A stretch of 64,000 nucleotides of DNA from Ruminococcaceae bacterium R-25 (GTDB lineage: Bacteria > Bacillota > Clostridia > Saccharofermentanales > Saccharofermentanaceae): assembly GCA_003149065.1 (NCBI GenBank), contig QGFZ01000001.1:1-64000 (forward strand), given 5' to 3'. Made by a program: the position numbers and the translations under genes. A model generated the notes under the pieces. The model did not search any database. It was not told the origin of the DNA and saw only the letters and a list, made by a program, of their open reading frames with translations. Below, in pieces: positions 8,519 through 61,729 of this stretch (its first letter is position 1; every line of letters begins with the position of its first letter).

Positions 8519-8519
8519 G

Positions 8520-9770: not shown

Positions 9771-9789
9771 TAATCGATTTTAGAATTAT

Positions 9790-9815
9790 TTAAGAATTCC
9801 TTAAAGGCACTTAAG
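9790..9815. promoter_or_regulatory. TTAAG/TTAAA tandem repeats before the ABC exporter
   Basis: TTAAG (9790), TTAAA (9801) and TTAAG (9811) recur at 11- and 10-bp intervals between the kinase stop and the ABC ATPase start. One-turn direct repeats fit binding by an OmpR-family regulator, here probably the one encoded at 7823. The half-site is the same as in the array at 4129. Confidence 0.5.
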
Positions 9816-9856
9816 GGTTGAAAAAGTATCCTAATGCCATAAGGAGGTCGGAAGAC

Positions 9857-10612: not shown

Positions 10613-10614
10613 TC

Positions 10615-12990: not shown

Positions 12991-13023
12991 ACGAATAACA
13001 GGGAATAGATTGAGTTTGTTGAA

Positions 13024-13056
13024 GGAGCCGTCCATAATGGGCGGCCCCTTAATTTT
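13024..13056 (+). terminator. Intrinsic terminator after the ABC exporter
   Basis: The stem GGAGCCGTCCA / TGGGCGGCCCC (one mismatch, one wobble) with loop TAA is followed by TTAATTTT. It closes the two-component/exporter operon. Confidence 0.8.
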
Positions 13057-13158
13057 CGCTTGTGTTAGAATCATTAAAACCAAATGTTAATTTGCGTTGC
13101 TTGTGTCCGGCGCGCCATAAAGCTATAACCGGAGCATAAGCAATGGAGGTTTTGCAAT

Positions 13159-13884
13159 ATGCTTAGCGACAACATAAAGAACTTAAGAAAACAGAAAGGC
13201 TATACGCAGGAGACCCTTGCGCAGGCTTTAAATATCGTCAGACAGACTGTATCAAAATGGGAGAAGGGATATTCGGTACCTGACGCCGATATGCTCGAGA
13301 AACTGTCGGAGGTTTTGGAAGTACCGGTAAGCGATCTCCTTGGCAAGCCCTCAGAAGCTGCTGAGCAAGCCTCAGAGCTCGAGAAGATCTCGGCGCAGCT
13401 TGCAATACTTAATGAGCAGATGGCGCGCGAGATGGCCAGACGTAAGCGCAACCGTAAGATCAAGATAATTATTGCCTCAGTCATCTTTGGTCTGCTTTTT
13501 ATCTTTGTTGCTTCTATTCTGATAACGCATCCTGTCTCCAGCAGTATTATGTCAGGCGATGCATCCAACGTCAGAGTATTAGAACGCCAGTCTTCTTTAT
13601 ATTCACAGGAAGAAATAGAAAGTGCGATCGAAGTTATCAAGCGTGATTTCGAGAATGACTGGAACGGATGCACTCTTAATACCATTTACTATGCAGGCGA
13701 TGAAGTCTGTGCTGATGAGACGCGCGAAAGAGGTGTTAAGACCATAGTGCTGATGTCGGATTTTACTACCGGCAATTATGATTTCGGCAGTCTTAATTCA
13801 AATTACACATATACTAACTGGAACTGGATCCTGATCGAGAATGAGCACGGCCGCTGGGAACATATCGACCACGGTTATGGCTGA
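13159..13884 (+). CDS. XRE-family HTH protein with a membrane anchor
   Basis: A 241-residue protein. An N-terminal helix-turn-helix of the XRE/Cro type (residues about 3-60) reads LRKQKGYTQETLAQALNI then RQTVSKWEKGYSVPD, a standard signature. A coiled-coil-prone basic segment follows (about 70-100). One transmembrane helix (about 103-123) leads to an external domain of about 115 residues without a known motif. The architecture suggests a membrane-tethered transcription factor or sensor. The start has GGAGG 14 bases upstream. The last 10 bases overlap the end of the convergent reverse transcriptase gene. Confidence 0.9.
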   Translation: MLSDNIKNLRKQKGYTQETLAQALNIVRQTVSKWEKGYSVPDADMLEKLSEVLEVPVSDLLGKPSEAAEQASELEKISAQLAILNEQMAREMARRKRNRKIKIIIASVIFGLLFIFVASILITHPVSSSIMSGDASNVRVLERQSSLYSQEEIESAIEVIKRDFENDWNGCTLNTIYYAGDEVCADETRERGVKTIVLMSDFTTGNYDFGSLNSNYTYTNWNWILIENEHGRWEHIDHGYG

Positions 13885-42071: not shown

Positions 42072-42665
42072 TTACCATCCGAATACCAGTGTGAGGAACA
42101 TATCTCCGAATAATGCAGCTGCACCGAGTCCATATGCAAGGAACGGTGCAAGCTTCATTTTGGAATGACGGTTTGCTTTCTTCCGGAGGAGAAGATAGAT
42201 TGAATATAAGCCTGCGGAAAAGATGCCTATCAGAGTTCCGGCTATCATATATCTCCAACCGAGATATAAGCCTGCGGCAGCCATGAGTTTTATGTCGCCT
42301 CCGCCGAATGCTCCTTTTATCATAAGAGATATAAGCAGCATCGGTACCGAAAAGCAGACAGCACCGATCAAGTGACTTGAAATACTTCCCAAGGATATTG
42401 TCTCAGTTGCAAAAAAGCTTATGACAGCTAGAACTGCAATCAAAATGACTATCAGATCAGGGACAATGCCTTTATTGATATCGGCTGATGCACATGCAAC
42501 AAGCAGCAACAAGAATATTGTGGTCAGTATACCGTGAACATTAAGGCCGCAGACATAAAGCCCTGCAAAAACAGCAACCGCCGCAAATATATAAAACACT
42601 GGCGACGGAATGCTTTTAAGGTCTTTTATGAGTCCGTTTGAAGCTTTCGGCGTATCAGTCGTCAT
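42072..42665 (-). CDS. Prepilin peptidase (A24), protease domain only
   Basis: A 197-residue membrane aspartic protease that should cleave prepilin leaders at the membrane inner face. Both A24 catalytic aspartates are present: D62 in SADINKGIVPD and D124 in GGGDIKLMAAAG. About six helices. It lacks the N-terminal N-methylating domain and the CxxC pairs of full-length PilD. The ATG at 42665 overlaps the last 11 bases of the ATPase gene. A second homologue at 60944 has the complementary features. It ends the minus-strand pilus assembly operon. Confidence 0.9.
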   Translation of the reverse strand: MTTDTPKASNGLIKDLKSIPSPVFYIFAAVAVFAGLYVCGLNVHGILTTIFLLLLVACASADINKGIVPDLIVILIAVLAVISFFATETISLGSISSHLIGAVCFSVPMLLISLMIKGAFGGGDIKLMAAAGLYLGWRYMIAGTLIGIFSAGLYSIYLLLRKKANRHSKMKLAPFLAYGLGAAALFGDMFLTLVFGW

Positions 42666-44340
42666 AGTAGGCGACACGCTCAAGTTCTTCAAATGAAGTA
42701 ATGCCTTGTTCTACAAGAGAGATCGCAGCCTGCTTTAAGGTCTGCATGTTCTGATTCTTTACGGCATAATCTTTCATCTCTTCAGATTCTGCACCGGAAG
42801 TGATGAGTTTACGCATATGCTTATCAACAACAAGAACTTCATGAATAGCGGTTCTTCCGAGATAGCCTGAACCATGACACTGGCTGCAACCAACACCTCT
42901 TTTTGCAGTAGGAATGTCATGTCCTACGAATTCTATCTGTCTTTCAGTAAGAGGTTCCGGTCTAGCGCAGTATGGACAGATCTTACGCATAAGTCTCTGT
43001 GCTATTACACCGACCAGAGCGGAGGACAGCATGTAAGGCTCAGCACCGATATCAACGAGTCTTACGATCGTAGATGCTGCGTCATTGGTGTGAAGTGTAG
43101 ACAAAACCAAGTGACCTGTAACGGCTGCTCTGATGGATATGGAAGCTGTCTCAGCATCACGCGTCTCACCGACCATGATTACGTCAGGGTCCTGACGCAT
43201 GAGAGCTCTTAATCCTACTTCGAATGTGAGTCCTGCAGTAGGGTGGACCTGTACCTGGTTAAGACGGGGCAGATTCTTCTCTACAGGGTCTTCAATAGTG
43301 CTGATATTAATAGGCTTCTGTGAAAGCGATTCAAGAGCCATGTAAAGCGTTGTAGACTTACCTGAACCCGTAGGACCTGTGATGTAGATCAAACCGTTAG
43401 GTGACATGAGCATGGAAAGGAACTTCTTGTAGTTGTCGGGAGTCATACCGAATGTCTGGTTGTTATCGATATGAACAGCGGAGAGGATGAGTCTCATAAC
43501 GACTTTCTCGCCGAAAACTGTAGGAATTACGTTAACACGAACGTTTACGATCTGTCCCTGAATTCTTACACGGAAATGTCCGTCTTGCGGGATACGTCTT
43601 TCGGCGATATCCATCTCGCCCATGATCTTAATTCTTGCAACGAGTGAATCCTGAACGTTTTTCTGCAGCTGTATATAATCGATGAGAGTACCATCGATAC
43701 GCATTCTTACGACGACGTTCTGTTCGAAAGGTTCTATGTGAACATCGGAAGCATTATCCTGGAATGCTTTATCAAGCAGTGAGTTAACAAGGTTGATGAT
43801 AGGAGCATCGTCAGCACCTGCACTTGTATCGATGACAAGTTCATCAAAACTTACACCTGCTGTGTTGGCATTGGCGTTTTCAGCTGCCATCTGAGCCTTG
43901 ATGCCTGCATACTGATAATCGATTGCCGATTTAAGAACATGTTCCTGTGCGATAACAGTCCTTACAGGCATACCGATAGTCTGTCTTATATCCTCAATAG
44001 CATAAAGGTTAAGCGGGTCATTAACAGCGAGGATTACTTCTCCATTGTCCTGAGCGATAGGAAGCATGACATACTGCTCTGCCATCTGCTTAGGGATGAG
44101 CTTTACGGTCTCGGGATCGATTGCATATGAGCTTAAATCGACAACATGGGTTCCGAGTCTGTTTGCGAGAGCAGAGAGCATCTGTTCTTCTGTAACATAA
44201 CCTAATTCTATGAGAACCTGACCGATTCTTTTACCGCCGGTTTGTTTTTGAATTCCAAGAGCCTCTTTGAGCTGGGCATCGCTTACATATCCGGCTTGGA
44301 CCAAAAGGTCACCAATACGAATCTTTGAATTATCTGCCAT
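42655..44340 (-). CDS. pilB: Type IV pilus extension ATPase, PilB/GspE type, with MshEN domain
   Basis: A 561-residue ATPase that powers pilin polymerisation at the cytoplasmic base. The N-terminal MshEN-like region has two similar motifs, RIGDLLVQAGYVSDAQL (8-24) and RIGQVLIELGYVTEEQM (38-54), a pattern associated with cyclic-di-GMP binding in MshE and PilB relatives. Walker A is GPTGSGKST (322-330), followed by the Asp box, Walker B (DPDVIMVGETRD) and the His box (HLVLSTLHTND). Zinc-binding CPYC (455-458) and CSQC (485-488) complete the GspE class. No retraction ATPase (PilT) gene is present in the window. Start follows GGAGGG. It overlaps the peptidase gene. Confidence 0.95.
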   Translation of the reverse strand: MADNSKIRIGDLLVQAGYVSDAQLKEALGIQKQTGGKRIGQVLIELGYVTEEQMLSALANRLGTHVVDLSSYAIDPETVKLIPKQMAEQYVMLPIAQDNGEVILAVNDPLNLYAIEDIRQTIGMPVRTVIAQEHVLKSAIDYQYAGIKAQMAAENANANTAGVSFDELVIDTSAGADDAPIINLVNSLLDKAFQDNASDVHIEPFEQNVVVRMRIDGTLIDYIQLQKNVQDSLVARIKIMGEMDIAERRIPQDGHFRVRIQGQIVNVRVNVIPTVFGEKVVMRLILSAVHIDNNQTFGMTPDNYKKFLSMLMSPNGLIYITGPTGSGKSTTLYMALESLSQKPINISTIEDPVEKNLPRLNQVQVHPTAGLTFEVGLRALMRQDPDVIMVGETRDAETASISIRAAVTGHLVLSTLHTNDAASTIVRLVDIGAEPYMLSSALVGVIAQRLMRKICPYCARPEPLTERQIEFVGHDIPTAKRGVGCSQCHGSGYLGRTAIHEVLVVDKHMRKLITSGAESEEMKDYAVKNQNMQTLKQAAISLVEQGITSFEELERVAYYDD

Positions 44341-46705: not shown

Positions 46706-47902
46706 TTACGATCCTGCACCGATTGTTTGATAGGACTGATATATCGGTTGAATGATAGAGATAATTACGAAACCTACGATTACAGCCATTACAACGATCA
46801 TTACAGGTTCAATGTATGAGGTCAGTTTGAGCAGAGCTTGCTTTGAATAGAAATCCAAATCATTTGCCACGGATTGAAGCATATTGCCGAGCATGCCGGT
46901 TTCTTCGCCAACCTTTATAGTTGAGGGAAGCTTTGATACAAACCCGTTTACTTCTTCTAGAGCTGAAGATAAAGGCGAACCACCGGCTACTTTCTTTTCA
47001 ACCTCATCAAACTGAGCCTCGATATATTTATTACCAATTGTGCTTCTTGATATTTCGATGCAACTGTGAATCGGAATGCCTGACAAATAGAGTGAACTCA
47101 TCGTTCTGGCAAATCTTGCAGAATAGATAACCTTTGTGAGCTTACCCCAGGCCCCCATAACCTTAATATGGTCGATATGATACTTAACTGCCGGCAGTTT
47201 TACGATAATCTTTCCAAATATGATGCCTAATACTACAATAACCAGCAAAACATACCATTTATGAGCAACGAAATCTGAAATACCCATAAGGATCCTGGTA
47301 GGTATTGGAAGGGAAGGTAATTGTGAAAACATTTCTTCAAACTGCGGCAATACATAACCGAATAAGATAGCTACAACGATAACTATCAAAACAGCAAGGA
47401 TCTTCGGATAAGTAAGGGAATTCTTAGCCTGCTGTTCCAGCTGGGATTCACTGGTATACTGATCGGCAAGACGGAGACAAGTAATATCAAGTGTTCCGGA
47501 TGTTTCAGCAGCTTTAATCATGAAGATGAGAAGAGGCGGGAAAGCAGGTTCTAACTCTTCCATCGCAATAGAAAGCGCTACACCCTGAACTATTCGGTCG
47601 CGAAGCCTTAAGAAAAGCTGCCTCTCATAATCACTGATGGATTCGTCATTGGCTATAATCTCAATGGCTTTAACAAGCGTAACACCAGCCTTGATAAGGG
47701 TACCAAGCTGACGACAGAAATCAGCGAGCTTAGGCTTCTTAAGAGGCTTTAATGCAACGTTCTTTTGAAGCGGTTTTGCTTCCAATAAAAGAAGACCAGA
47801 ATCGTGGAAACGTTTCTGCAAATCAGTCTCATCGTAAGCTTCGGCTTTGCCTTTGACGATCTTTCCTTTACTGTCCTGTGCCTGATATTTATATTCCGGC
47901 AT
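46706..47902 (-). CDS. pilC: Type IV pilus platform protein, PilC/GspF type
   Basis: A 398-residue inner-membrane platform protein. Two repeated GspF domains (about 65-190 and 270-395) each show cytoplasmic helices and a TM. The motif YQAQDSKGKIVKGKAEA at the N-terminus and ETSGTLD / ETGMLG in the repeats are family hallmarks. It connects the ATPase to the pilin pool. It is the second gene of the minus-strand assembly operon. Confidence 0.95.
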   Translation of the reverse strand: MPEYKYQAQDSKGKIVKGKAEAYDETDLQKRFHDSGLLLLEAKPLQKNVALKPLKKPKLADFCRQLGTLIKAGVTLVKAIEIIANDESISDYERQLFLRLRDRIVQGVALSIAMEELEPAFPPLLIFMIKAAETSGTLDITCLRLADQYTSESQLEQQAKNSLTYPKILAVLIVIVVAILFGYVLPQFEEMFSQLPSLPIPTRILMGISDFVAHKWYVLLVIVVLGIIFGKIIVKLPAVKYHIDHIKVMGAWGKLTKVIYSARFARTMSSLYLSGIPIHSCIEISRSTIGNKYIEAQFDEVEKKVAGGSPLSSALEEVNGFVSKLPSTIKVGEETGMLGNMLQSVANDLDFYSKQALLKLTSYIEPVMIVVMAVIVGFVIISIIQPIYQSYQTIGAGS

Positions 47903-48873: not shown

Positions 48874-49329
48874 ATGAAGCTTAAGAGCAAGACCACATTA
48901 TATCGCAGATCTTCCGATATTCTCCGAAGCAAAAAAGGTACGAGTATCGTGTTTGTTTCAATAATTGCGATCATAGTTTTGACAGCTGTAGTTGTACTAA
49001 GGACAACTACAAGTTCTTTGTGGGCTTCTGCCGATAAACAATACTATCAGGATAGGGCATATGTAATGGCAACCAGTATGGGTTCATCTATAAATGCTCT
49101 TATAAACGATGGAACGATAAAACTTGATGACTATAAGAATTCTAATCAGCTTCAAATACTTCAAGACAATGCTGATAACGGCACTGTTTCTGTAACAGTT
49201 ACCCATGACGAAGAAGGAAATGGTTATCTGGTAGAGGTAAAGGCTGAAATGCCAAATTCCGTTTATATCTATCGGGCTTACTATTATAAATCCGCAACTA
49301 CTAGTTCATATAAGAGGCAGATTTTATGA
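48874..49329 (+). CDS. PilX-like pilus accessory membrane protein
   Basis: A 151-residue protein. A basic N-terminus (RSKKGTSIVFVSIIAIIVLTAV) and a hydrophobic helix are followed by a soluble domain rich in Asn/Asp. The helix has G before it, but T and not F/M follows and no Glu lies at +5, so it resembles PilX/PulK-type accessory proteins more than a standard prepilin. The ATG at 48874 follows AAAAGGA; an upstream in-frame TTG gives a spurious leader. Its stop overlaps the next start by four bases (ATGA), so the two are translationally coupled. Confidence 0.75.
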   Translation: MKLKSKTTLYRRSSDILRSKKGTSIVFVSIIAIIVLTAVVVLRTTTSSLWASADKQYYQDRAYVMATSMGSSINALINDGTIKLDDYKNSNQLQILQDNADNGTVSVTVTHDEEGNGYLVEVKAEMPNSVYIYRAYYYKSATTSSYKRQIL

Positions 49330-49676
49330 AATGCATTTGGAAAACAGGCAAAGGCATAAAAGATAATTCCGGCGAGACAATGGTAGAAGTGCTTGTGGCA
49401 TTTACTTTGCTTTCAATACTTCTCGTTATTTTTTCGCAAGGAATAGCGATGGCTACAAAATCTGAGTTTAATGCAGATAAGAGTAGAAACGGTGCGGATG
49501 AAGCAATGAAAAACGCACAGGATTATATGGCTGAAGATGATGCAGGTAAACCATATGATCAGGTTCAAGGGTATTTTGACGATAGAATAAAACGAATGTC
49601 TTATTCTTGTACAGTTGACGGTCAAACATATAATTACGTGTATTATGAGCCGATTTTGTTATCAAACGGCGGGTGA
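49326..49676 (+). CDS. Minor prepilin-like protein
   Basis: A 116-residue protein with a type IV prepilin-like helix. After SG comes ETMVEVLVAFTLLSILLVI: G at -1, Glu at +5, but Glu at +1 where Phe or Met is usual. The rest is a short globular domain (about 75 residues) with no cysteine pair beyond C67-like positions. It likely is a minor pilin in the tip or initiation complex. It overlaps the preceding gene and precedes another minor pilin. Confidence 0.82.
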   Translation: MKCIWKTGKGIKDNSGETMVEVLVAFTLLSILLVIFSQGIAMATKSEFNADKSRNGADEAMKNAQDYMAEDDAGKPYDQVQGYFDDRIKRMSYSCTVDGQTYNYVYYEPILLSNGG

Positions 49677-49680
49677 TCTT

Positions 49681-50457
49681 ATGCGAAGAATAACCATGAG
49701 AAAGAGTAAAAAAGCTATAACGCTTGTTGAACTTGTTGCTGCAATGGCTTTGATGGCAATATTTCTTTTGGCATGTACTTCATTAATATATCCTGTAGTC
49801 AAGATTTATAATCACATGAATGAAATGAGCCGTTCCCAAATACTTGCAGATACTGTAGTCGATTCACTTCGTGCTGAATGTGCAAGAACATATATCTCTT
49901 CTAAGAATGATGTATGGATATCAAATAGATCTGGGGATGAAGTTATGGATAGTTTTCCTGGTAGTACTACATTTCCCAGTGGAGTTCTTGTGATTCGAAA
50001 GAGTTACGAATATTGCGAGACATTGTCTACTAATTATGCTATTTCCGGTACGCTCTGTAATACTATTTATGATGCGGAGAACACGGATGAAATCGATCCT
50101 TTGACAGGAAATCTTACAAGTCGTGCTATCTATACAATGTTTGATACTGTTCCTGTTTCAGTTGATCCGGAAGCTGCAATAGCATCTCAGAAAGGGCATT
50201 TGCACTACGGTTTCTTCAAAGTTGGAGCTGAGGCAAATAATGGAGTTTTCCCATCGGAACTCTATGATTTCACAGATCCTTTTATGGATCCGACATATGG
50301 AAATTTCACTGTAGAGCTTCAATTCCATGATATTAAATATGATGCTTCCGATATGCCTGTATATGTTCTTGTCGATGTGAAAATATTTGATGGATCGAAG
50401 AATATTTATACAAGAAGTAATGTTGTATTGAGTTTTGCATCCCGAGAGTGGCAATGA
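49681..50457 (+). CDS. Minor prepilin-like protein with alanine at -1
   Basis: A 258-residue protein with prepilin leader MRRITMRKSKKA then ITLVELVAAMALMAIFLLA. The cleavage would be after Ala (position -1), a substitution known to reduce peptidase cleavage in some systems, with Glu at +5. The larger C-terminal domain (about 40-258) is beta-rich. It lies between a small minor pilin and the giant pilin. The ATG at 49681 follows a GGGTGATCTT sequence with weak SD. Size and position fit a PilW/GspJ-like minor pilin. Confidence 0.82.
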   Translation: MRRITMRKSKKAITLVELVAAMALMAIFLLACTSLIYPVVKIYNHMNEMSRSQILADTVVDSLRAECARTYISSKNDVWISNRSGDEVMDSFPGSTTFPSGVLVIRKSYEYCETLSTNYAISGTLCNTIYDAENTDEIDPLTGNLTSRAIYTMFDTVPVSVDPEAAIASQKGHLHYGFFKVGAEANNGVFPSELYDFTDPFMDPTYGNFTVELQFHDIKYDASDMPVYVLVDVKIFDGSKNIYTRSNVVLSFASREWQ

Positions 50458-50503: not shown

Positions 50504-50718
50504 TCATCGTTATTTGTGTTTCCAATCCAGAGAATATAGACGAAATACTCCTTTCTTTTTATTCATTTTGAGATATTTTTCACGTAACAAATTAGAAATT
50601 TTTTTAATAATTATTTTATTTGAAGTTCCCGAGCGGAAACTTTATAATCAGAGTATAAAATTATATTTATATTTTGCGGTTGCTTTGATGCTTTTTAATG
50701 ATTGATACAGGAGATGTC

Positions 50719-53700
50719 ATGAGAGTCGTAAGAACAATGAATTCAAATACTAAAAAAAGACACGTCACCCGTGGCTTTTCTTTAGTTGAACTTATTGTGG
50801 TTATCGCACTTATCGTGATCCTGGCTACTGTTGGTTTGGTTAGTGCTATAGGATATGTTAAGCATTCAAAGTTTGATAAAAACGAGAAGAATGCCATTAC
50901 TGTATATCAGACAGCGCAAACCGCTTTGTCTCATATGACATCTGCCGGTACTGTTGACGGTTGGGTACGTGATCTTATCTCTGAAGCTTCTATTGATCAT
51001 ATAAATGCTTTGGAACCTATTGATAATCCTGAAGCTAATGAAACAGTAGGCAAGACAGTACATCTTACTTATAATCCCGGAAAGCCGAATAAAGAGAGCG
51101 TGATCCTCTACGATTTGTTGTCCGGTTATTTTTATGATCAGACAATTTTCAATGGTACTATTTCTGTCGAGTTCTATATCAGCATGACATATGATGCTAA
51201 TAAGATTCCTTATTATTCTGCAAGAGTAAAGTCGGCATTTTATAGCATAGAGAATACTGCAACTATCGGTTGGGATGATACTTGTCTTAATGGTTCTACA
51301 GATGGTCTTCCTGATAGAGACACCAATAGAAGATATACTACCACTTTCGTAGGTTATTATGATGGCACTGAAGCTTCAGCTAAGCCGAAGGTCGTTTCTG
51401 TTTTCCTTCCCAGGTCTCAGGACTTTGTTTTGGATGGTCATATTGTCGGACCTACAGTTGATCCTAATGCAAGTGCTGAAGGATATTTATTTAATCTTCG
51501 TAACGGTGAGACCCTTGATGTGTCTTGGGCTATGTTTGATCAAGACGGTAAGCTTCATGGAGATCTTGACCGTAATGAAGAATTAACTATTAAATTATGT
51601 GATGCGCAATCCGGCAATGCTGATTCTTTCAGTGATGTTGTTTTAACAATCGGTCCGGATACTTTAGACGATGTCAGATTTGATATATTAAAAAATAGAT
51701 CAACTCATGAAATTGTCGTAGAAAGAATAAATTCATATTTAATAACAAGAACTTCTTATGAGTCTACTGTAAGTGTCAAGGTAAAGCGTGGTAGTACTGA
51801 AAATGTATATGTATTTCCGATTACCGTAACTAAGGTGGAAGGCGATGGCAGGACCGGATGTCCTGTTGATGCAGAAGGTAATCCGGCAGCATATATTGAA
51901 TACAAGTTATCTTTGGATTGTATGATGATCCGTTCGGATGAAACTCAGAATAATAAAGTTCGATACAATTCCGAAAGACTTTTCTCAAATGATAATACTC
52001 ATTCGCTTCCAAGAAATTTTTATGCAACTATTTCCGGAAGGTTTGATTATTGTACAAATGATCAGGAAGAGCCTGTTAAGCTCTCTGTACCTTTAACTTA
52101 TGCAGCAAGAGCCATGGATGATCCTGTTTATTACACGGGAATGAATGGCACAACATATGTTTATGATCTTCCTAACCTAGATGTTGAAGGTAAGACAGCC
52201 AATGACGAAGACAATAATAATGATGAAGGTATTACCGGTAAGTGTATAGTTAATACACTGTTTGGTGATGCTTACTATAATGATCTTGTAGAAGGAACTT
52301 CATGGACTTCAAATGGCGGAAGTGCGGTAATAACTTCATTCAGACACTTATATAATATTCGTTGGATAGATTCACAAAAGACAGCTGATTACCATATTAT
52401 TCACAATCTTGATTGGTATGTTCATAGCGGAAACAACTATGTAAGCGAAGTCAAGGTCTTTATGTCTCACGTTAGAGAAGATAGAGATAATTATGGTTAT
52501 GACGGAGTTCGTTATCGTTCGCCTGCTCAGAACAATAATCTGTATGTAGTATCATTTCCTGCAATATGTAAGCTTGGTGCAAATCAAACAATTTCATCAA
52601 TGTCAGTTGCCAACAGAACTACTTACGCAATCAATAATGTTCAAATGCGAACGGCTTCTTTTAGAAGCGGTGATGCCGCATATGGTTTGGTATGTACAAA
52701 TTATGGTGTCCTCTATAATTTATATATTAATAACCTTAATATTATCCTTGCTGATGTTAAAGACGGATCAGCAAGTGATTATTCACTTACATCTGCTAAT
52801 TTTAATCCTAATACTACAGTAAATATTAGTACCGGCGGTTCATTGTTGCTTGATGATAAGAGTGTTGGCGGACTTGTAGGTGGTAATTACGGTTTGGTTG
52901 GCCAGGCTGATATAACTGATACTGAGAATGTTATTCGTATGAATAACTGCATCATTATGAGTGGTAATTATTGGCAGTTGGCTAATTTAAGGAAAGATGG
53001 CAAAGAAGCAAGTTCTTCAACTGGCGGCGTTATCGGCTATAACGAAGGAAAGAGTAGTGGCGCACAATCGACTTATGGAATTATCGAAATGCGCGGAGCT
53101 TTCGTTGTCGTTGGTGGTGGTACTTGTGTAGGTGGTGTCATTGGAAAAAACAATGCAAATACTTCTGCAAGACTTATAACAAACGGCGATAAAGTAAAGG
53201 GTACTACATGCGAGTATTCGCTTCCGGCTGAAAATCATAATACAACGAGCTTAAGTTGTGTTGTAGCTGGTCGTGGTAGTGTCGGCGGTGCTATAGGAAT
53301 GTTTGAGAAACATTCTTTAAACTATTCTGTAGGACATGTCTTTGCAAAAGAAGAAGTGACCTATGATTCTGTTACAGGGCAGCCACGTTTCGCTAAAAGA
53401 AATGATAGCGATTATCAGATTGACGTTACAATTCCTGCAAAGGGATTGGTTTTGAAGGTCCCTCATGCGACAAATGATAATGATACAACTCCTGTTGGCG
53501 GAGCTATAGGCACTTGGAACGTTTGTAACGGGTCTTATGCGAGCATACGTGTTCATAATTACGGCAGTGTTATTTCTGCGGATACCACGAGAAAGATCGC
53601 TTGTGGAGCAGCAGTTGGAGAAGATATAAATTGTACTATATCCAAGGTGTTTATCAATGTCGTCAATGAAAAGGGCTCAAGACTCGGTTCTATGTCTGAT

Positions 53701-56700
53701 ACTGCAGGTCCGAGACGTGTTGGTGGTGCTTATGGTTATATCGGTTGTACTTCAACAGACCGTACTATTGCCATTGACATTAGTAATGATGGACACATCG
53801 TTGCAAAAGGAACCGGTAATGGTTACGGCGAAGGTGCAGGCGGTGCAATCGGTGCAACTTCTCATCTCGTTAAAGTTGATTTCTTTGTCAAAGCAATAAA
53901 TAAATCCAATTCGTTGATCAAAGACTTGGGCGGCAGTTTGAATAATTCCAGCGGAACCGGTGGCGTTATCGGTTCTATGGGATATGGTGATACTACGGAG
54001 TTAACTGGAACTTCTGTGCTGTTTGCTGAAAACCATGGAAGTATTAATGGTCAATGCCGAGTTGGCGGAGTTTTGGGTAACGCTGCTCGTACCTCAGGCA
54101 ATATTTATTCAGTTAACTATGGTACTATAACCGGAACATATTATGTCGGCGGTGCAGTCGGAAGACATATTTATAATCATTCAGGTACTATCCAATCTAT
54201 TTTAGATAGCGGATGTTCAATATCTGGTGCTAACTACGTAGGCGGAGCAACAGGAAGATTATCCTACTTTATGGATAATGCCGTTGTTAAGACTATAGTA
54301 CGTGGCAATTCTACAATAGAAGGATCCCTTTCTGCAGTTGGTGGAATTTGCGGTGATTTGCGAATTGCCGGCAGCGGTATCGGTGGCACTATAAAACTTA
54401 GTGGCGACAGTTCGGATCCTATACTTACTGTTAACGGCAAAGATGGTATAGGTGGTGCCATCGGCATTTTGAGATCTGATTTAGTTAATAGTGCTAAGAT
54501 CGCTACTCCTGATCAGAGCAGTACAAATAAGCTGGCTGTACACATAAGCGGCACAAATTACGTAGGTGGTGCTGTTGGATGCCTTAATTCGGCAGGCAAT
54601 ACTGTAGATGAAACCACGCCTAGTAATCTTTTTAACAATACTGCGGCGATAAAGGAGATTTTGGTTACAGTCAGCGTAAAACTTAGTCCGAAATCATTTG
54701 TGTATGGAACAGGTGAGAATGTTGGTGGTGCTGTAGGTGCTGTCATTGGTAGGTATTTAGGAGAGGATTATACAAAATTTGGAGGAATAATTACCGTATT
54801 GACTGCTTCCGGTTCGACCTCGAATTCCGCATATATCCGTGGTAAAAAATATGTGGGAGGAGCAGTTGGCCGCTTCGATAGTGTGGTACCAACCATATCA
54901 AATAATAATGCCACTGGAAATATCCAAGCAGATTTTTCTGCTGCTCGTTGGACTATTGAGGCAACAGTTTCAGCCGGTACTGAAGCTGATGTAGGTGGTG
55001 CTGTCGGTTATTTCAAAGCAACAATAGATAGGAAATATGGCGTTAACGACAATGCTTACCGCATTTCGGTAAATCTTGGACCAACTGATGTAAAGTCTGC
55101 TGGTTATAATGTTGGCGGCGCTATTGGCAAGAATCAGGTAAGAAACGGCATTGTTTCTGTTGGCGGCATTAGTGGTACTGTATCCGGTCAATATAATGTC
55201 GGAGGCGCTATAGGATTAACTGAATATCAGTTATATGAGGTAAATGCTATTGTAGCTTCAACGGGAATCATAGAAGCAACCGGCTCTTCTCCTGAGGCTT
55301 CTTCCTATCTTACTGGCCGTGATAAAGACGGCTCAAAAGGAGATGGTTCTAATGTTGGTGGAGCTATCGGTAAATATAGTTTTACCGGAAGCGATACTAT
55401 TACTATTACATCAAAAATCAATGCTACGGTAAGCGGTAAGATTTTAGGTCCCGGAAATAATGTAGGTGGTGTTGTAGGTTATTGCTATACAACTAAAAAC
55501 AAGCATTTAATTAGAAATATTTCAGCTGTTCTGCAAGGTAATGCCATTGTTAGTGGTGCTGATAATGTCGGCGGAGCAATGGGTTTCAGTTTGAGTAATA
55601 TTACCAATGTAAGATCCAATATTTCCGGTACTTCCAGTATCGAGGGTAAATATCATGTCGGTGGAGCTATTGGCTGGACTTATGCTATCGAACAAGCGAC
55701 CGGTGCCAATGTTCTTGCACAGAATCCTGAGGATCTTAATCCGGATACCCTTACTATAGCTGAGCTTGAAACAAAACTAAATAGTCTATATAAGTCATCT
55801 GGTCGTATAGCTAATATTGTAGCAACTATTTCTGCGGATAAAGCGTTGATAGGTGTTGCATCTATCGGCGGAGCTGTTGGTCAAAGCGGATACAAATCTA
55901 ATATTGGCAATAGTGGTAATACTTATGCATCGCCCGCACTTGTAAATGTTCAAGCAAATCTTAATACAGGTTATCTGTTTGATCCTTTTGAAACAGGTAT
56001 CGGTCTTAATGAGTTGAATCCTATAGATAAACCCAAAGCAAGTGTTCAGGGTGCATATGGTAATGCATGCATTGGCGGTGTAATTGGACTTGTTGTAGAT
56101 GGTCGAATTAACAGCGTAAGATTAGATGGTACAGGTGGTACTGTAAACACTGATTCCCTTTATCCTTGCCCGGAGATTTCAATGAGTGGTGCTGTTCTTA
56201 TGGCAGCCAAGGGCCATTCTATTGGAGGAATAATTGGACAAATCGGTCTTTTGGGATATGGTAAAGATGTTGGTATTGAAGATAGTGGTGCACAGAATGT
56301 TACCGTTTCAGAAATAAGTGCATCTGATACGCTCGGAATCTGTGTAGTATCAATGAATGATGCTAACAATATCGGCGGATGGATAGGAAGCGGCTATGGT
56401 GTTTTCGGTGGCATAGGAAACAGATTATATAGCGATTATAAGAATACGAATACTCGCGCTATTTATAATGTAAATAATATTAAATATATTTACAGTAAAG
56501 GAAACAATGTTGGTGGTTTCTGTGGCTATTCTCGTGGATATAAAAAGAATAGTAATAAAGATAATAATAACAACCAACCGGGTCATGCAACTTGGGCAGA
56601 TATTAACGTTAATCTTAAAAATGCAACGATATGCGGCAGCACTGCTGTTGGAGGTGCATTTGGCCGTGCTGAAGGTGTCAAATTTGCCTGGGGTGCAATA

Positions 56701-57051
56701 AATGTCAATTTGACTGATCACTCCATTATTGGAGATCCTTCAAGGAGCAATATATGCAAAGAGGCTGGCGGAGCAATTGGATATTTGAGAAATCAGACGG
56801 TGGAATTTGGTGTACCGGTTACTGTAACGATTGATTCCACATCAAAGGTCAGGGCTAATGGCAAATTGGATGGATCTGGTATTAGTTACGGAGTAGGCGG
56901 TGCTTTTGGAAGATGCAGCGGAGTATTCGCCAGACTTAAATATGATGGATCAAATTACTATAGTTGTGTTGGTACCATAACTGTTAATTCTGCAGATCCT
57001 AATAATATTTCAGTATATTCATTGTCTTCCAATGCTGGTGGTGTTATTTGA
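50719..57051 (+). CDS. Giant prepilin-leader adhesin, N-terminal 2,110 codons, ended by an in-frame TGA
   Basis: Starts MRVVRTMNSNTKKRHVTRG|FSLVE, with cleavage after G19, F20 at +1 and E24 at +5, followed by a hydrophobic helix (about 24-45). Thus it enters the type IV pilus pathway although it is more than ten times pilin size. Residues about 50-600 hold mixed beta domains. From about 660 onward a GLUG-like repeat recurs about 33 times, each with the core VGG(A/V/I)(I/V)G and a preceding loop, suggesting a beta-solenoid adhesin stalk. The frame closes with TGA at 57049-57051, directly after GGVI. In every other repeat the next residue is Gly, so GGA to TGA is the likely change. The continuation frame is open for another 964 codons. 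The ATG at 50719 follows CAGGAGATGTC. Confidence 0.9.
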   Translation: MRVVRTMNSNTKKRHVTRGFSLVELIVVIALIVILATVGLVSAIGYVKHSKFDKNEKNAITVYQTAQTALSHMTSAGTVDGWVRDLISEASIDHINALEPIDNPEANETVGKTVHLTYNPGKPNKESVILYDLLSGYFYDQTIFNGTISVEFYISMTYDANKIPYYSARVKSAFYSIENTATIGWDDTCLNGSTDGLPDRDTNRRYTTTFVGYYDGTEASAKPKVVSVFLPRSQDFVLDGHIVGPTVDPNASAEGYLFNLRNGETLDVSWAMFDQDGKLHGDLDRNEELTIKLCDAQSGNADSFSDVVLTIGPDTLDDVRFDILKNRSTHEIVVERINSYLITRTSYESTVSVKVKRGSTENVYVFPITVTKVEGDGRTGCPVDAEGNPAAYIEYKLSLDCMMIRSDETQNNKVRYNSERLFSNDNTHSLPRNFYATISGRFDYCTNDQEEPVKLSVPLTYAARAMDDPVYYTGMNGTTYVYDLPNLDVEGKTANDEDNNNDEGITGKCIVNTLFGDAYYNDLVEGTSWTSNGGSAVITSFRHLYNIRWIDSQKTADYHIIHNLDWYVHSGNNYVSEVKVFMSHVREDRDNYGYDGVRYRSPAQNNNLYVVSFPAICKLGANQTISSMSVANRTTYAINNVQMRTASFRSGDAAYGLVCTNYGVLYNLYINNLNIILADVKDGSASDYSLTSANFNPNTTVNISTGGSLLLDDKSVGGLVGGNYGLVGQADITDTENVIRMNNCIIMSGNYWQLANLRKDGKEASSSTGGVIGYNEGKSSGAQSTYGIIEMRGAFVVVGGGTCVGGVIGKNNANTSARLITNGDKVKGTTCEYSLPAENHNTTSLSCVVAGRGSVGGAIGMFEKHSLNYSVGHVFAKEEVTYDSVTGQPRFAKRNDSDYQIDVTIPAKGLVLKVPHATNDNDTTPVGGAIGTWNVCNGSYASIRVHNYGSVISADTTRKIACGAAVGEDINCTISKVFINVVNEKGSRLGSMSDTAGPRRVGGAYGYIGCTSTDRTIAIDISNDGHIVAKGTGNGYGEGAGGAIGATSHLVKVDFFVKAINKSNSLIKDLGGSLNNSSGTGGVIGSMGYGDTTELTGTSVLFAENHGSINGQCRVGGVLGNAARTSGNIYSVNYGTITGTYYVGGAVGRHIYNHSGTIQSILDSGCSISGANYVGGATGRLSYFMDNAVVKTIVRGNSTIEGSLSAVGGICGDLRIAGSGIGGTIKLSGDSSDPILTVNGKDGIGGAIGILRSDLVNSAKIATPDQSSTNKLAVHISGTNYVGGAVGCLNSAGNTVDETTPSNLFNNTAAIKEILVTVSVKLSPKSFVYGTGENVGGAVGAVIGRYLGEDYTKFGGIITVLTASGSTSNSAYIRGKKYVGGAVGRFDSVVPTISNNNATGNIQADFSAARWTIEATVSAGTEADVGGAVGYFKATIDRKYGVNDNAYRISVNLGPTDVKSAGYNVGGAIGKNQVRNGIVSVGGISGTVSGQYNVGGAIGLTEYQLYEVNAIVASTGIIEATGSSPEASSYLTGRDKDGSKGDGSNVGGAIGKYSFTGSDTITITSKINATVSGKILGPGNNVGGVVGYCYTTKNKHLIRNISAVLQGNAIVSGADNVGGAMGFSLSNITNVRSNISGTSSIEGKYHVGGAIGWTYAIEQATGANVLAQNPEDLNPDTLTIAELETKLNSLYKSSGRIANIVATISADKALIGVASIGGAVGQSGYKSNIGNSGNTYASPALVNVQANLNTGYLFDPFETGIGLNELNPIDKPKASVQGAYGNACIGGVIGLVVDGRINSVRLDGTGGTVNTDSLYPCPEISMSGAVLMAAKGHSIGGIIGQIGLLGYGKDVGIEDSGAQNVTVSEISASDTLGICVVSMNDANNIGGWIGSGYGVFGGIGNRLYSDYKNTNTRAIYNVNNIKYIYSKGNNVGGFCGYSRGYKKNSNKDNNNNQPGHATWADINVNLKNATICGSTAVGGAFGRAEGVKFAWGAINVNLTDHSIIGDPSRSNICKEAGGAIGYLRNQTVEFGVPVTVTIDSTSKVRANGKLDGSGISYGVGGAFGRCSGVFARLKYDGSNYYSCVGTITVNSADPNNISVYSLSSNAGGVI

Positions 57052-59946
57052 GTGATGGAAAATGTTAATATGTCCGGATATAAATTTAATGCAACGGATT
57101 ATTGGAGTTTTGCTAATAATGTAACAGTACAAGCAGATGGTGATAATGCTTGCGTTGGCGGATTTGTCGGAAAAATCAGTTCGCTCTCAAGTGACATGTA
57201 TAATTGCTACAGCTTAGGTAAAGTTTCTGTTCGTGCTAACGGTAATAATTCGTGTGCCGGTGGCTTTGTCGGATATGCGACGTTGGCAGATGATAACAGG
57301 AAAATTAATACTTGTTACACAACTGCTAAAGTTATTTCATTATCAGGTGCATATACCGGTGGTTTTGTCGGTGAATTTATTCGCGGCACAATATCCAATT
57401 GTTATGTCGGAGGACATACTTTCCAGGGTAGTTATGTATCCGGTGAGGGCAATGTTACCGGTAAAGGTAATGTAGGTGGTTTTATCGGAGCAACTAATGG
57501 AACAAATACTATTTCTATAAGCGATTGCTATTCAACTGCATCTGTTCTTGGTACCGGAAATAATGTTGGCGGATTTATCGGTAGTTCTTCTGCGAACACC
57601 AAGATCAGTAAATGTTATTGTACAGGCCGTGTTATTGGTTCTGATGAAAATGTTACCGGTTCATTTGCAGGAACTATAGGAGCCGCAAATCTTAATAACA
57701 TTACGAACAATCAAGTAATGCGTAATATTAACAAGGGTGACTTCCCGTTGATCGGACGTTCGTGGACTGCAGAAGTTGCTGATAGTAAAATCAAATATGC
57801 AGATGATACGGAGATTGGAGCAGGCAGATCAGATACCGGCCATCCGTTTGATACAGCATTAACAGATCCGTTTACTCTCCGTGCAGTAATCGGCACAGAC
57901 CATTATGGAGACTGGCCTTTGCCGAGTGGACAGAATACTATTGATGATGCAGTAGTTCAGATCTATGTTCAGACCGGTGAAAACGATCAGGGCGAACCGA
58001 TTTATGATTGGATAGATTTTAAAAATGATACATACGAATACGAATTCAACGGTTCATTTGTAAAACTCGATGAGACCCAGATAAGGCTTCGTGTTCAGGG
58101 CGAGACACTTACCCAGAATACAGATTATATTGTCTATTACCGGGATAATAATAAGGTTGGTCAGGCTACGATTTCGTTTGCAGGAAAGAGTGGCAGTAGT
58201 TATTCCGGTGCAATTAGCAGAACCTTCAATATCACTCCTGCGAATATTGATGGTGCAGAAGCTGTGTTTAATGAGCAGTCTCGTGAATATACCGGTGCGC
58301 GCATTAATCCAGACGTAACAGTTACTTACAATGGTATTAATTTGATATATGGTACGGATTATACCTTTGCATTTGATAGAGACGGAAATGTCGATGAAGG
58401 TTATGATAATGACAATATTAATATCGGCATAATGAATGTTTACATTATTGGTAAGGGTAATTATGTTGAAAGTAAATTGATCGGTCAGTTCGAGATAGCT
58501 TCTGTTGATCTGAGTAATCTTGATGATACTGATATTGATCTTATAGGTGCAGATAACCTTGTTTACAACGAGGTAGACGGTGTAGCTGTTGAGCACTGTC
58601 CTGGTGTTGTTGTCAGATATAACGGTCAAACTCTCAAGGGAACAACTAACCCTGAAGAATATAACGAATGTGACTATGTTGTTTCTTATGAAAGCAATAC
58701 TACGGCAGGCACCGCATATCTTGTCATAACAGGTACTGCGGATCCTTCAATAGGAAAGGGCTCGGTTTATACCGGCATAAGGAGAGTGGAATTCACTATT
58801 TCACCTGCAGTCAATACATGGACAGAAGATGCCGCTATTGATGGATGGATCTATGGCGAAAAGCCTAAGGCTCCGACCGGAAAACTGAAATTTGGCGAAA
58901 TTGTTTATGAATACTGTTATGATTTGGATTGTAATAACAAGATAGACGATATCAGTGCAGTTGGTGTGGGCCAGTATTATGTGAAAGTGTCTGCTGAAGA
59001 AAGCGAAAATTATACGGGACCGACATCTACTATATTAAGCTTTACAATAACACCTTTGGAGATTACGGGTGCTTCTGTTACTGTAGACCCGGGTGAGTAT
59101 CTTTATACCGGTTCTCCAATTGATATTGAAAAGAAAAATATTATTGTTACTGTCGGCGAAGGTGATTCTGCATTTGCGCTTGGACCGGATGATTTTACTA
59201 TTGAGTCTTATGCGCCTTCCAATCACACAGATGCTGGTACTGTAACGATAACGTTAAATGGTGCCGGAAATTATAAAGGTACTGCTCAAGGCACATTCAT
59301 TATATATCGTGAATTTACAGTCACATTTATGGCAAACGGAGAGCAATATGATAGTAAACAGATAAGAGAAGGCTACAAAGCTAGTGCGCCTGAAGATCCC
59401 ACTCCTGCAGAAGGTTATAGATTTGGCGGATGGTACACAGGTTCTGATGTGAAGTATACCTTTAATGAAGCAGTTACGGAGAATATTACACTCTATGCAA
59501 AATGGATCAGAATCAGGACGATTAAATTTGAAACAGGAGATCCTAATGTCATAATAAGTCCTAATCCGCAGATTGTTGATGAGGGAACTTATGCTACTCG
59601 ACCTGCCGATCCGAAACGTGATGGTTATCAATTTGACGGATGGTATCACAATAATTCGCCATACGGATTTGATACTAAAGTTTATGATGATATTACGCTT
59701 CAAGCCAAGTGGACACCTGTTTATACGATTAGTTTCGTTACAGGAGATGGAACTGCGATAGATCCACAGTATGTACCGGAGAATGGTGTAGTAACTGAAC
59801 CTGCAGAGTCTCCTAAACGTAACGGATTTGTATTCGCAGGGTGGTATACTGACGAAGATTGTACTATACCTTATGTTTTTACAAAGCCAGTAACGGGCAG
59901 CTTCCCGTTATATGCTAAATGGGACGTCGATCCCAATAGCGAATGA
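57052..59946 (+). CDS. C-terminal 964 codons of the giant adhesin, separated by the TGA
   Basis: In the same frame as the preceding gene. It continues GLUG-like repeats (five clear VGGF(V/I)G cores, to about residue 195). Then come Ig/MBG-like beta domains (about 280-700) and three InlB-type B-repeats (about 755-960), each ending in a (L)YAKW- or QAKW-type motif and holding GGWY/DGWY/AGWY. No signal peptide, prepilin leader or LPXTG is present, so as a separate protein it could not be exported. The GTG at 57052 and ATG at 57055 directly follow the stop, so coupled reinitiation is possible, with only a weak GGTGG upstream. Best read as the severed end of one 3,075-codon gene. Confidence 0.85.
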   Translation: MMENVNMSGYKFNATDYWSFANNVTVQADGDNACVGGFVGKISSLSSDMYNCYSLGKVSVRANGNNSCAGGFVGYATLADDNRKINTCYTTAKVISLSGAYTGGFVGEFIRGTISNCYVGGHTFQGSYVSGEGNVTGKGNVGGFIGATNGTNTISISDCYSTASVLGTGNNVGGFIGSSSANTKISKCYCTGRVIGSDENVTGSFAGTIGAANLNNITNNQVMRNINKGDFPLIGRSWTAEVADSKIKYADDTEIGAGRSDTGHPFDTALTDPFTLRAVIGTDHYGDWPLPSGQNTIDDAVVQIYVQTGENDQGEPIYDWIDFKNDTYEYEFNGSFVKLDETQIRLRVQGETLTQNTDYIVYYRDNNKVGQATISFAGKSGSSYSGAISRTFNITPANIDGAEAVFNEQSREYTGARINPDVTVTYNGINLIYGTDYTFAFDRDGNVDEGYDNDNINIGIMNVYIIGKGNYVESKLIGQFEIASVDLSNLDDTDIDLIGADNLVYNEVDGVAVEHCPGVVVRYNGQTLKGTTNPEEYNECDYVVSYESNTTAGTAYLVITGTADPSIGKGSVYTGIRRVEFTISPAVNTWTEDAAIDGWIYGEKPKAPTGKLKFGEIVYEYCYDLDCNNKIDDISAVGVGQYYVKVSAEESENYTGPTSTILSFTITPLEITGASVTVDPGEYLYTGSPIDIEKKNIIVTVGEGDSAFALGPDDFTIESYAPSNHTDAGTVTITLNGAGNYKGTAQGTFIIYREFTVTFMANGEQYDSKQIREGYKASAPEDPTPAEGYRFGGWYTGSDVKYTFNEAVTENITLYAKWIRIRTIKFETGDPNVIISPNPQIVDEGTYATRPADPKRDGYQFDGWYHNNSPYGFDTKVYDDITLQAKWTPVYTISFVTGDGTAIDPQYVPENGVVTEPAESPKRNGFVFAGWYTDEDCTIPYVFTKPVTGSFPLYAKWDVDPNSE

Positions 59947-59974
59947 CATAATTCATTAGTATTTCAAGATGTTA

Positions 59975-60011
59975 ACTATCGCCGGGCACAAAGCTCGGCG
60001 ATAGTTTTTTG
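59975..60011 (+). terminator. Intrinsic terminator after the giant adhesin gene
   Basis: The perfect stem CTATCGCCGGGC / GCTCGGCGATAG (one wobble) with loop ACAAA is followed by TTTTTTG. Confidence 0.92.
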
Positions 60012-60278
60012 TATCGGAACCCCAGCTTTGTTAATAGATTGTTCGTAAACACCCCCTCCGTTAACACGCAGTTTTCAAATTAGGGCGTTTTCAGTATTGG
60101 TTAAACAAATTGTAACTCAGTGATGAATTGTGGCGAAAATGTGTTGCACTCCGATTTGAGATGGGATATAGTGTAACCATCAAGCAGTCAACAAGATTTG
60201 ACAACCGTCAAACAGAATTGACAAAAACTCAAAAATCTTATTCACTCGAAGGGTGAAAAATAAAAGGAGGTCACGACC
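60012..60278 (+). other. Upstream region of the major pilin gene
   Basis: No gene. The palindrome TTTGACAACCGTCAAA lies at 60197-60212. GTCAA-type elements also lie near 60187, and TTGACA near 60218 could be a -35 box. GTGTAACC near 60171 is a partial half-site of the 17-bp palindrome. No -10 element at good spacing was identified, and no known riboswitch motif was recognised. Confidence 0.5.
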
Positions 60279-60773
60279 ATGAAAAAGTTAGGTAAGTCAT
60301 CAAAGAAGGGTTTCACATTAGTAGAACTCATCGTAGTCATTGTTATCCTTGCAGTTCTCGCAGCTATGCTCGTTCCTGCACTTGTTGGATACATTGACAG
60401 AGCAAAGAAGGAAAAGGATTATCAGACAGCTTCTACAGTTTATGCAGCAGCTCAGGCAGTTCTCACAGAACAGTATGGTAAGAATAATATTACTAAAGAT
60501 ACTAATGGTAAGTATTCTGTAACATCAATCACAAAGGACCAGTTTAAGGCTGAAGACAAGACAACAGATGCAGTTATTGAATTAGCTGGTGTTGATCCCA
60601 ATAAGGTATCAGGCTACACATTTACTGTTTCGGATACTAATCTTGTTATTTCTTGGGGTTCAGTAACTATCAAGAATGGTGGTGCTGGCGGTGAAGCTGG
60701 TGTTACATACTATTTGTACAAGGACGGCACTTGGGGTGTTACACCAACTACAGATGGTAATAAGCCCGCTTGA
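60279..60773 (+). CDS. pilA: Major type IV prepilin
   Basis: A 164-residue pilin. Leader MKKLGKSSKKG|FTLVELIVVIVILAVLAA, with cleavage after G11, F12 at +1, E16 at +5. The long hydrophobic alpha helix is followed by an amphipathic region (YQTASTVYAAAQAVL) and a small beta-rich head ending GTWGVTPTTDG. No cysteines, so no disulfide loop. The strong RBS AAGGAGG and own terminator suggest high expression, as expected for the main fibre subunit. It lies just downstream of the giant adhesin and upstream of the second peptidase homologue. Confidence 0.95.
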   Translation: MKKLGKSSKKGFTLVELIVVIVILAVLAAMLVPALVGYIDRAKKEKDYQTASTVYAAAQAVLTEQYGKNNITKDTNGKYSVTSITKDQFKAEDKTTDAVIELAGVDPNKVSGYTFTVSDTNLVISWGSVTIKNGGAGGEAGVTYYLYKDGTWGVTPTTDGNKPA

Positions 60774-60843: not shown

Positions 60844-60943
60844 TATGTCTGAATGTTTATGCTGGGATCACTAACTCTTTTTGCATTTCCTCACACAGTG
60901 TATAATCAAAGTCAGAAATATCCCGTTAAGGAGAATACTTGTT

Positions 60944-61729
60944 TTGATTTTTTCTTATCCTTTGTTTGAGATACCTTTTATAGGAATATATTTAATTATA
61001 TTAGCTTTTATGTTTGGAGCTGTTTTCGCAAGCTTCATTACATGTACGGCTTGGCGTGTTGTCAGAGGTGAGGACTGGATGTTAGGTCACAGCCACTGCG
61101 ATACTTGCGGTCACGAGCTTTCCACGGCAGACCTTTTCCCTATCATTTCATATATTGCTTTGAAGGGTAAGTGCAGATACTGCGGTTCGAAGGTTCCGCC
61201 GAGAGATCTGATTTTCGAGATCATATTGGGACTGTTATTTGCAGGAACGCTTGCACTGCACGGCGTTGTAGATGCAGCAGTCATTGCGGCTCTGGCACTT
61301 GAGATGCTCTTGCTCGGATTGTCTCTGGCGGACTGGGATTCCGGCGTTATTCCTGACGGATTTCTGGCAGCGATCTTGGTAGTCTGGATCCTTACGGTAG
61401 GATTCAGGCAGGACATTCAGAGATTTGCGATAGAGGGCGTTATTGCTTTTATGGCATGCGGTCTGCTCATGGCAATCGCAACTGCAATCATCGGCAAGAT
61501 AATGAAAGCCAAAGTCAGCTACGGCCCGACAAAGCTTGCCATGTGCCTCATGCTTTTCCTTGGCTTTAAGGGTTCAGTCGTAGCTTTGGGCGTTGCGGTT
61601 GTGCTGGGAATCTTTTTCGCGCTTGTCTGCAAGTCGAAAAAGAGAAGGATCTCACTCGCACCTGCAATCTCTATAGGCTTTGTTGTTGCTTTTCTGGTTA
61701 AGGATGCTTTGGCGGTCTTTTTCGCATAA
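60944..61729 (+). CDS. PilD-like prepilin peptidase homologue lacking the second catalytic aspartate
   Basis: A 261-residue polytopic protein. The N-terminal domain has the two cysteine pairs of full-length prepilin peptidases (C52/C55 in CDTCG, C77/C80 in CRYCG) and DLFPIISYIALKGKCRY, which is the methyltransferase part. The first A24 aspartate is present, D130 in LADWDSGVIPD. At the second site, GGGD-K-L is replaced by SYGPTKL (residues 192-198), with P195 at the Asp position, so proteolysis should be lost. The TTG at 60944 is chosen because AAGGAG lies 10 bases upstream. It may N-methylate pilins processed by the short peptidase at 42072. Confidence 0.88.
   Translation: MIFSYPLFEIPFIGIYLIILAFMFGAVFASFITCTAWRVVRGEDWMLGHSHCDTCGHELSTADLFPIISYIALKGKCRYCGSKVPPRDLIFEIILGLLFAGTLALHGVVDAAVIAALALEMLLLGLSLADWDSGVIPDGFLAAILVVWILTVGFRQDIQRFAIEGVIAFMACGLLMAIATAIIGKIMKAKVSYGPTKLAMCLMLFLGFKGSVVALGVAVVLGIFFALVCKSKKRRISLAPAISIGFVVAFLVKDALAVFFA

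What the first reader, a model, noticed from the sequence alone, without database searches (positions are those of the whole stretch)
57049..57054. In-frame TGA exactly at an invariant glycine of the repeat
The frame is open on both sides for thousands of bases, and every other repeat reads VGG(x)(I/V)G. Here it reads AGGVI then TGA then VMENVNM. A single GGA-to-TGA change would restore the pattern. It looks like a recent nonsense mutation, phase-type inactivation, or programmed read-through.
Basis: seen in the sequence. Interest (0 to 1): 0.85.

Follow-up and report, generated by a model that had tools for sequence, protein, structure and literature searches.

The report
Stop codon splits giant pilus protein
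A gut-type bacterium carries a single stop codon in the middle of a very large pilus surface protein that its relatives make in one piece, most likely an ordinary recent loss-of-function mutation (or a sequencing error) rather than a special decoding trick.

Summary
TGA at 57049-57051 cuts one open frame (50698-59946, +) into 2117 and 964 codons. The uncut gene would be a giant type IV prepilin: N-terminal prepilin motif, 39 GLUG-like repeat motifs (one holding the stop) and C-terminal Flg_new repeats. It lies in a type IV pilus locus.

In the same genus, 22 of 25 fetched homologous regions hold a complete unbroken frame (2433-3781 aa). Of the other three, one is cut by a contig end, one is frameshifted elsewhere and one is a different protein. 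Glycine occupies the TGA column in 13 of 13 close relatives.

Nothing supports recoding. TGA ends 25 of 52 local ORFs. RF2 is present. SelB and tRNA-Sec stay below cut-off. None of 44 tRNAs has a UCA anticodon, and tRNA-Trp has a normal anticodon stem. No RNA fold, slippage repeat, invertible repeat or second copy was found.

Best reading: a recent nonsense change truncating a modular pilin-adhesin. An assembly error cannot be excluded. Programmed read-through is unsupported.

The parts
50698..57051 (+). N-terminal piece of the split gene, 2117 aa as ORF; likely true start ATG 50719 (2110 aa). Prepilin N-terminus followed by GLUG-like repeats.
   Evidence: ORF and translation; PF07963 above its cut-off, TIGR02532 above its cut-off; start choice
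50767..50832 (+). Prepilin cleavage/methylation motif (residues 24-45 of the ORF)
   Evidence: PF07963, 21.9 bits against cut-off 21.2
57049..57051 (+). In-frame TGA at the column where relatives have Gly
57052..59946 (+). C-terminal piece, 964 aa: last GLUG-like repeats and three Flg_new (Listeria-Bacteroides) repeats; no prepilin motif found
42072..42692 (-). Peptidase_A24 (type IV leader peptidase catalytic domain)
   Evidence: PF01478, E 2.2e-13
42655..44340 (-). Pilus assembly ATPase (MshEN-T2SSE)
   Evidence: PF00437, E 1.9e-128
46706..47902 (-). Pilus platform protein (T2SSF)
   Evidence: PF00482, E 1.3e-47
49326..49676 (+). Small prepilin-like protein
   Evidence: PF07963, E 3.3e-05
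49615..50457 (+). Prepilin-like protein
   Evidence: PF07963, E 6.9e-05
60279..60773 (+). Pilin of ordinary size
   Evidence: PF07963, E 3.1e-09
60881..61729 (+). Protein with the N-terminal domain of bacterial A24 prepilin peptidases
   Evidence: PF06750, E 1.2e-23

Best explanation
The sequenced strain carries a recent nonsense change in a giant modular type IV pilin. Intact relatives make a single protein of about 2400-3800 aa; its N-terminal prepilin helix would be built into the pilus and its long beta-solenoid plus C-terminal repeats would be displayed outside as an adhesin. Here RF2 ends translation at codon 2118 of the frame, leaving either a shortened pilin without the last solenoid turns and the C-terminal repeats, or an unstable product. 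The 964-codon remainder has no prepilin motif and no good ribosome binding site, so it is probably not made, or made only by rare UGA leakage. Shown here: the stop, the intact relatives, the conserved Gly, the pilus locus, the standard code. Inferred: that the stop is real in the strain, the adhesin role, the fate of the product, and its recency.
For: 22 of 25 fetched homologous regions of the genus hold one complete unbroken ORF and no relative shows a stop in that column. Gly at the TGA column in 13 of 13 close relatives. TGA is an ordinary stop here, 25 of 52 ORF ends, with RF2 present. Conserved columns are kept downstream (119 of 131) as upstream (277 of 301), within the range of intact relatives, and zero further stops bound neutral divergence since the event to about 2.5%: young if neutral. 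A second, unrelated break (frameshift) in relative G100 hints that breaks in this gene occur. No Shine-Dalgarno core before GTG 57052 or ATG 57055.
Against: No reads and no second strain could be examined, so a base error is open. Retention of the C-terminal piece is equally what selection for a read-through product would give. Nothing shows the truncated pilin is made, displayed or non-functional.
Confidence: 0.65

Rival explanations
1. A single-base error in the assembly or consensus (or a mixed population); the strain's gene is intact.
For: One base-level oddity in an otherwise open frame of more than 9 kb, with no further decay; no relative has it.
Against: No direct evidence of poor sequence: the assembly has only 7 contigs, completeness 99.22, contamination 1.24, and no other break was seen in this gene. 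Quality at the base could not be examined.
Confidence: 0.2
2. Real stop, but tolerated through basal UGA leakage by near-cognate tRNA-Trp: mostly short pilin, a few percent full length, without dedicated recoding signals.
For: PMC7918605 (discussion) cites 6% read-through of a TGA in prfB+ Bacillus subtilis and argues that in-frame stops are widespread, brief and possibly leaky; the downstream frame is intact and conserved.
Against: tRNA-Trp has the normal 5-pair anticodon stem, RF2 is present, no stimulatory fold. Trp in a Gly position of the solenoid could itself be harmful (inference).
Confidence: 0.08
3. Two separately translated proteins: termination at TGA and restart at the abutting GTG or ATG.
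For: GTG and ATG directly follow the stop and the downstream frame is open.
Against: No Shine-Dalgarno core upstream. The second product would begin in mid-solenoid without a prepilin motif, and no relative is split there.
Confidence: 0.04
4. Dedicated recoding of UGA (selenocysteine, a Gly-reading or other suppressor tRNA, or an alternative code).
For: The stop falls exactly on a Gly position, as a code with UGA as Gly would give (such codes are recalled, not looked up).
Against: 25 of 52 ORFs end in TGA; RF2 present; none of 44 tRNAs has anticodon UCA; SelB and tRNA-Sec below cut-off; no SECIS-like fold better than shuffles.
Confidence: 0.01

Closest known systems
Modular type IV pilins (Streptococcus sanguinis PilB and PilC; PMC8179133)
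   Same: Prepilin N-terminus with extra, probably displayed modules, encoded in a pilus locus of a monoderm-type bacterium (paper passages).
   Different: The added part is a GLUG-like solenoid of roughly 2000 aa plus Flg_new repeats, not a vWA or lectin module. Intact relatives reach 3781 aa; the paper names an 860-residue protein as its most extreme multi-domain case. The window's copy is broken.
GLUG-repeat beta-solenoids of IgA1-protease-like proteins (PDB 3n6z)
   Same: 3n6z is the best structural match of the predicted repeat region, probability 1.00, E 1.1e-3; PF07581 Glug matches; IgA1 protease chains match the profile over one stretch.
   Different: TM-scores only 0.32/0.42 and no match passes E 0.001. 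No peptidase domain was found by Pfam in either piece.
[quoted passage not shown]
   Same: A lone stop in an otherwise conserved frame; the paper finds such stops widespread and short-lived.
   Different: The paper demanded the stop in two or more orthologues; here it is in one genome only.

Membership tests
Modular type IV pilin | Prepilin cleavage/methylation N-terminus | tested here: met
   PF07963 and TIGR02532 above their cut-offs
Modular type IV pilin | Extra module(s) fused to the pilin part in one chain | tested here: met
   Met in relatives as one ORF; in the window the repeats up to the stop are still in frame with the prepilin start, those beyond are cut off
Modular type IV pilin | Encoded with a type IV pilus assembly machine | tested here: met
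   ATPase, platform protein, prepilin peptidase domains and pilins nearby; pilus genes beside it in 8 of 8 named loci examined, of 41 returned
Modular type IV pilin | Assembled into or displayed on the filament | not testable with these tools
   needs pilus preparations
Nonsense-mutated gene (pseudogene) | In-frame stop absent from orthologues | tested here: met
   No stop in that column in any of the 24 homologues whose alignment spans the site; Gly in 13 of 13 close ones
Nonsense-mutated gene (pseudogene) | Loss of function or relaxed selection | tested here: inconclusive
   Downstream conserved columns kept 119 of 131, like upstream 277 of 301: too young, or still selected
Programmed stop-codon read-through / recoding | Stop conserved among orthologues | tested here: not met
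Programmed stop-codon read-through / recoding | Decoding machinery or stimulatory RNA element | tested here: not met
Phase-variable gene | Slippage repeat, invertible segment or silent cassette at the switch | tested here: not met

The most novel reading that the evidence does not exclude
The stop is a natural length switch for a pilus adhesin: most molecules end at the UGA as a short-armed pilin and a few percent leak through to the long-armed form, so one gene displays two adhesins and the population benefits from the mix.
Probability: 0.05. Interest if true: 0.65.

Novelty: new member of a known kind. Interest (0 to 1): 0.22.

Why it matters
As a stop codon it is ordinary: a lone nonsense change or base error in a fast-changing surface gene. 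The useful by-product is the gene it breaks. A genus with gut and rumen members keeps, inside its type IV pilus locus, a prepilin of roughly 2400-3800 aa that carries a long beta-solenoid. If these are assembled into pili they would be much longer than the modular pilins described in the paper passages seen here, and the broken copy would be a natural test of what the last third does.

Tried and rejected
Alternative code or recoding was tested by tRNAs, RF2, SelB, tRNA-Sec and stop usage and rejected. A 4-bp anticodon-stem tRNA-Trp was sought and not found. A SECIS-like or read-through hairpin was sought in four stretches: z-scores 0.75, 0.29, -0.26, 0.63, so rejected. Phase variation by slippage or inversion: no suitable repeats; the one tandem array in 50600-60200 is a weak one at 56540-56570, about 480 bases away. 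A silent cassette or paralogue: the DNA is single copy; protein hits elsewhere in the genome are weak ones to the C-terminal repeats or to pilin N-termini. The global MAFFT of the window plus the 11 first-fetched homologues misregistered the distant ones, so I relied on local and close-set alignments; the 9 and the 13 are subsets that I chose as collinear or close. In the pairwise test over all 25 homologues, 24 spanned the site: 18 Gly, 3 gaps, 3 other residues (L, T, V, in alignments of 26-30% identity). In the 13-member set the G100 row is only its C-terminal ORF, so its upstream value of 0.425 is an artefact. The genus search found matches in 51 of 85 genomes at E 1e-20, many of them only to the repeats; I fetched 25 regions. 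Literature: the searches for GLUG with prepilin and for rumen giant pilin adhesins returned nothing; the large-minor-pilin search returned only PMC8179133. None names this family, but the library is limited. Two searches for read-through in adhesins gave nothing pertinent by title and abstract listing.

Full report
Observation. The TGA lies at 57049-57051 in a frame open from 50698 to 59946 except for it. The pieces are 2117 and 964 aa. The better start is ATG 50719, which has AGGAG before it.

What the gene is. The N-terminal piece begins with a prepilin motif; the C-terminal piece has GLUG and three Flg_new stretches. A model of the 461 residues around the stop, read with TGA as W, is mostly strands with mean pLDDT 82. 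Its best PDB match is 3n6z, a putative IgA1 protease, E 1.1e-3 and TM 0.32/0.42; the lower-ranked hits are weak and are mainly polygalacturonases, phage tailspikes and the like, which are right-handed beta-helix proteins (recalled). I therefore call it a beta-solenoid (inference). A profile of the same region matches IgA1 protease chains in the PDB over one stretch only; that this is their GLUG-like repeat region is my inference. No peptidase domain was found.

Surroundings. Pilus genes flank it: Peptidase_A24 at 42072, an MshEN-T2SSE ATPase at 42655, T2SSF at 46706, prepilins at 49326, 49615 and 60279, and an A24_N_bact protein at 60881. The genome collection returned 41 loci; I examined the eight strongest (L084-L091), and in 8 of 8 the long gene also stands beside pilus genes. 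Their titles are Clostridiales, Clostridia or Ruminococcaceae, several from rumen or gut samples, including Ruminococcaceae bacterium AB4001. The T2SSE and T2SSF neighbours are 77-86% identical while the best segments of the long protein are only 30-45% identical. That is the pattern of a fast-changing surface protein on a conserved machine (inference).

Relatives at the site. Both pieces, searched separately, find the same single ORF in relatives with collinear spacing. I fetched 25 homologous regions from the genus. In 22 there is a complete unbroken ORF with a prepilin-type start; G013 is cut by its contig end; G100 is broken by a frameshift elsewhere; G021 is a different protein without a prepilin start that matched only the C-terminal repeats. 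At the TGA column, Gly occurs in 9 of 9 chosen collinear relatives, 13 of 13 close relatives and, by pairwise BLAST over all, 18 of 24, with three gaps and three other residues in low-identity alignments. No relative has a stop there.

Code and decoding. TGA ends 25 of 52 ORFs in the window plus 12 kb, a mechanical ORF set that includes the TGA in question. RF2 is present at 498.8 bits against a cut-off of 370. SelB and tRNA-Sec are below cut-off. The 44 tRNA places were all read by ARAGORN, 30 and 14, and none has anticodon UCA. The tRNA-Trp found has five anticodon-stem pairs. This matters because PMC13092985 (abstract and section 20 read) shows that a 4-bp stem, not the normal one, raises UGA read-through in E. 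coli. Folding around the stop is no better than shuffles.

Age and selection. Downstream conserved columns are kept 119 of 131, upstream 277 of 301, within the range of intact relatives. A neutral C-terminus would gain about 1.2 stops per 1% divergence; zero further stops bound the divergence to about 2.5%. So the event is young, or the C-terminus is still selected; the test cannot separate these. PMC7918605 (abstract, section 4 part 1 and section 7 part 1 read) concludes that such stops are widespread, persist only briefly and may be read through; it cites 6% UGA read-through in a prfB+ B. subtilis strain. That keeps mild leakage alive as a rival.

Mechanism. Most likely RF2 terminates at this codon; the shortened pilin is either displayed without its last repeats or degraded; the remainder is not translated, having no Shine-Dalgarno core before GTG 57052 or ATG 57055. 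These steps are inferred. A base error is the main rival, at 0.2.

Verdict. The wider interest is the family of giant modular prepilins. PMC8179133 (search listing and passages) reports modular pilins as widespread and very diverse and names an 860-residue protein as the most extreme case with multiple added domains; most intact relatives here are about three to four times that length. PMC6916266 (passages) recalls that type IV pili in monoderms were first described in Ruminococcus albus, where they mediate adhesion to cellulose; whether the present pili do so is unknown.

Noticed in passing
L155:4379-8839 and 8473-13464 (genome G100): A relative's copy of the same giant prepilin gene is split by a frameshift into overlapping ORFs of 1487 and 1664 aa, at a different place from the window's stop. 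Real break or assembly error not decided.
   Followed up: partly
window 42072-42692 and 60881-61729: The two halves of a prepilin peptidase seem to lie in separate genes: Peptidase_A24 alone at 42072, A24_N_bact alone at 60881, on opposite sides of the giant gene.
   Followed up: no
window 50698-59946 and genus relatives: A family of giant prepilins up to 3781 aa is encoded in the type IV pilus locus across this genus; the long gene sits at different places relative to the pilus genes in different species.
   Followed up: partly
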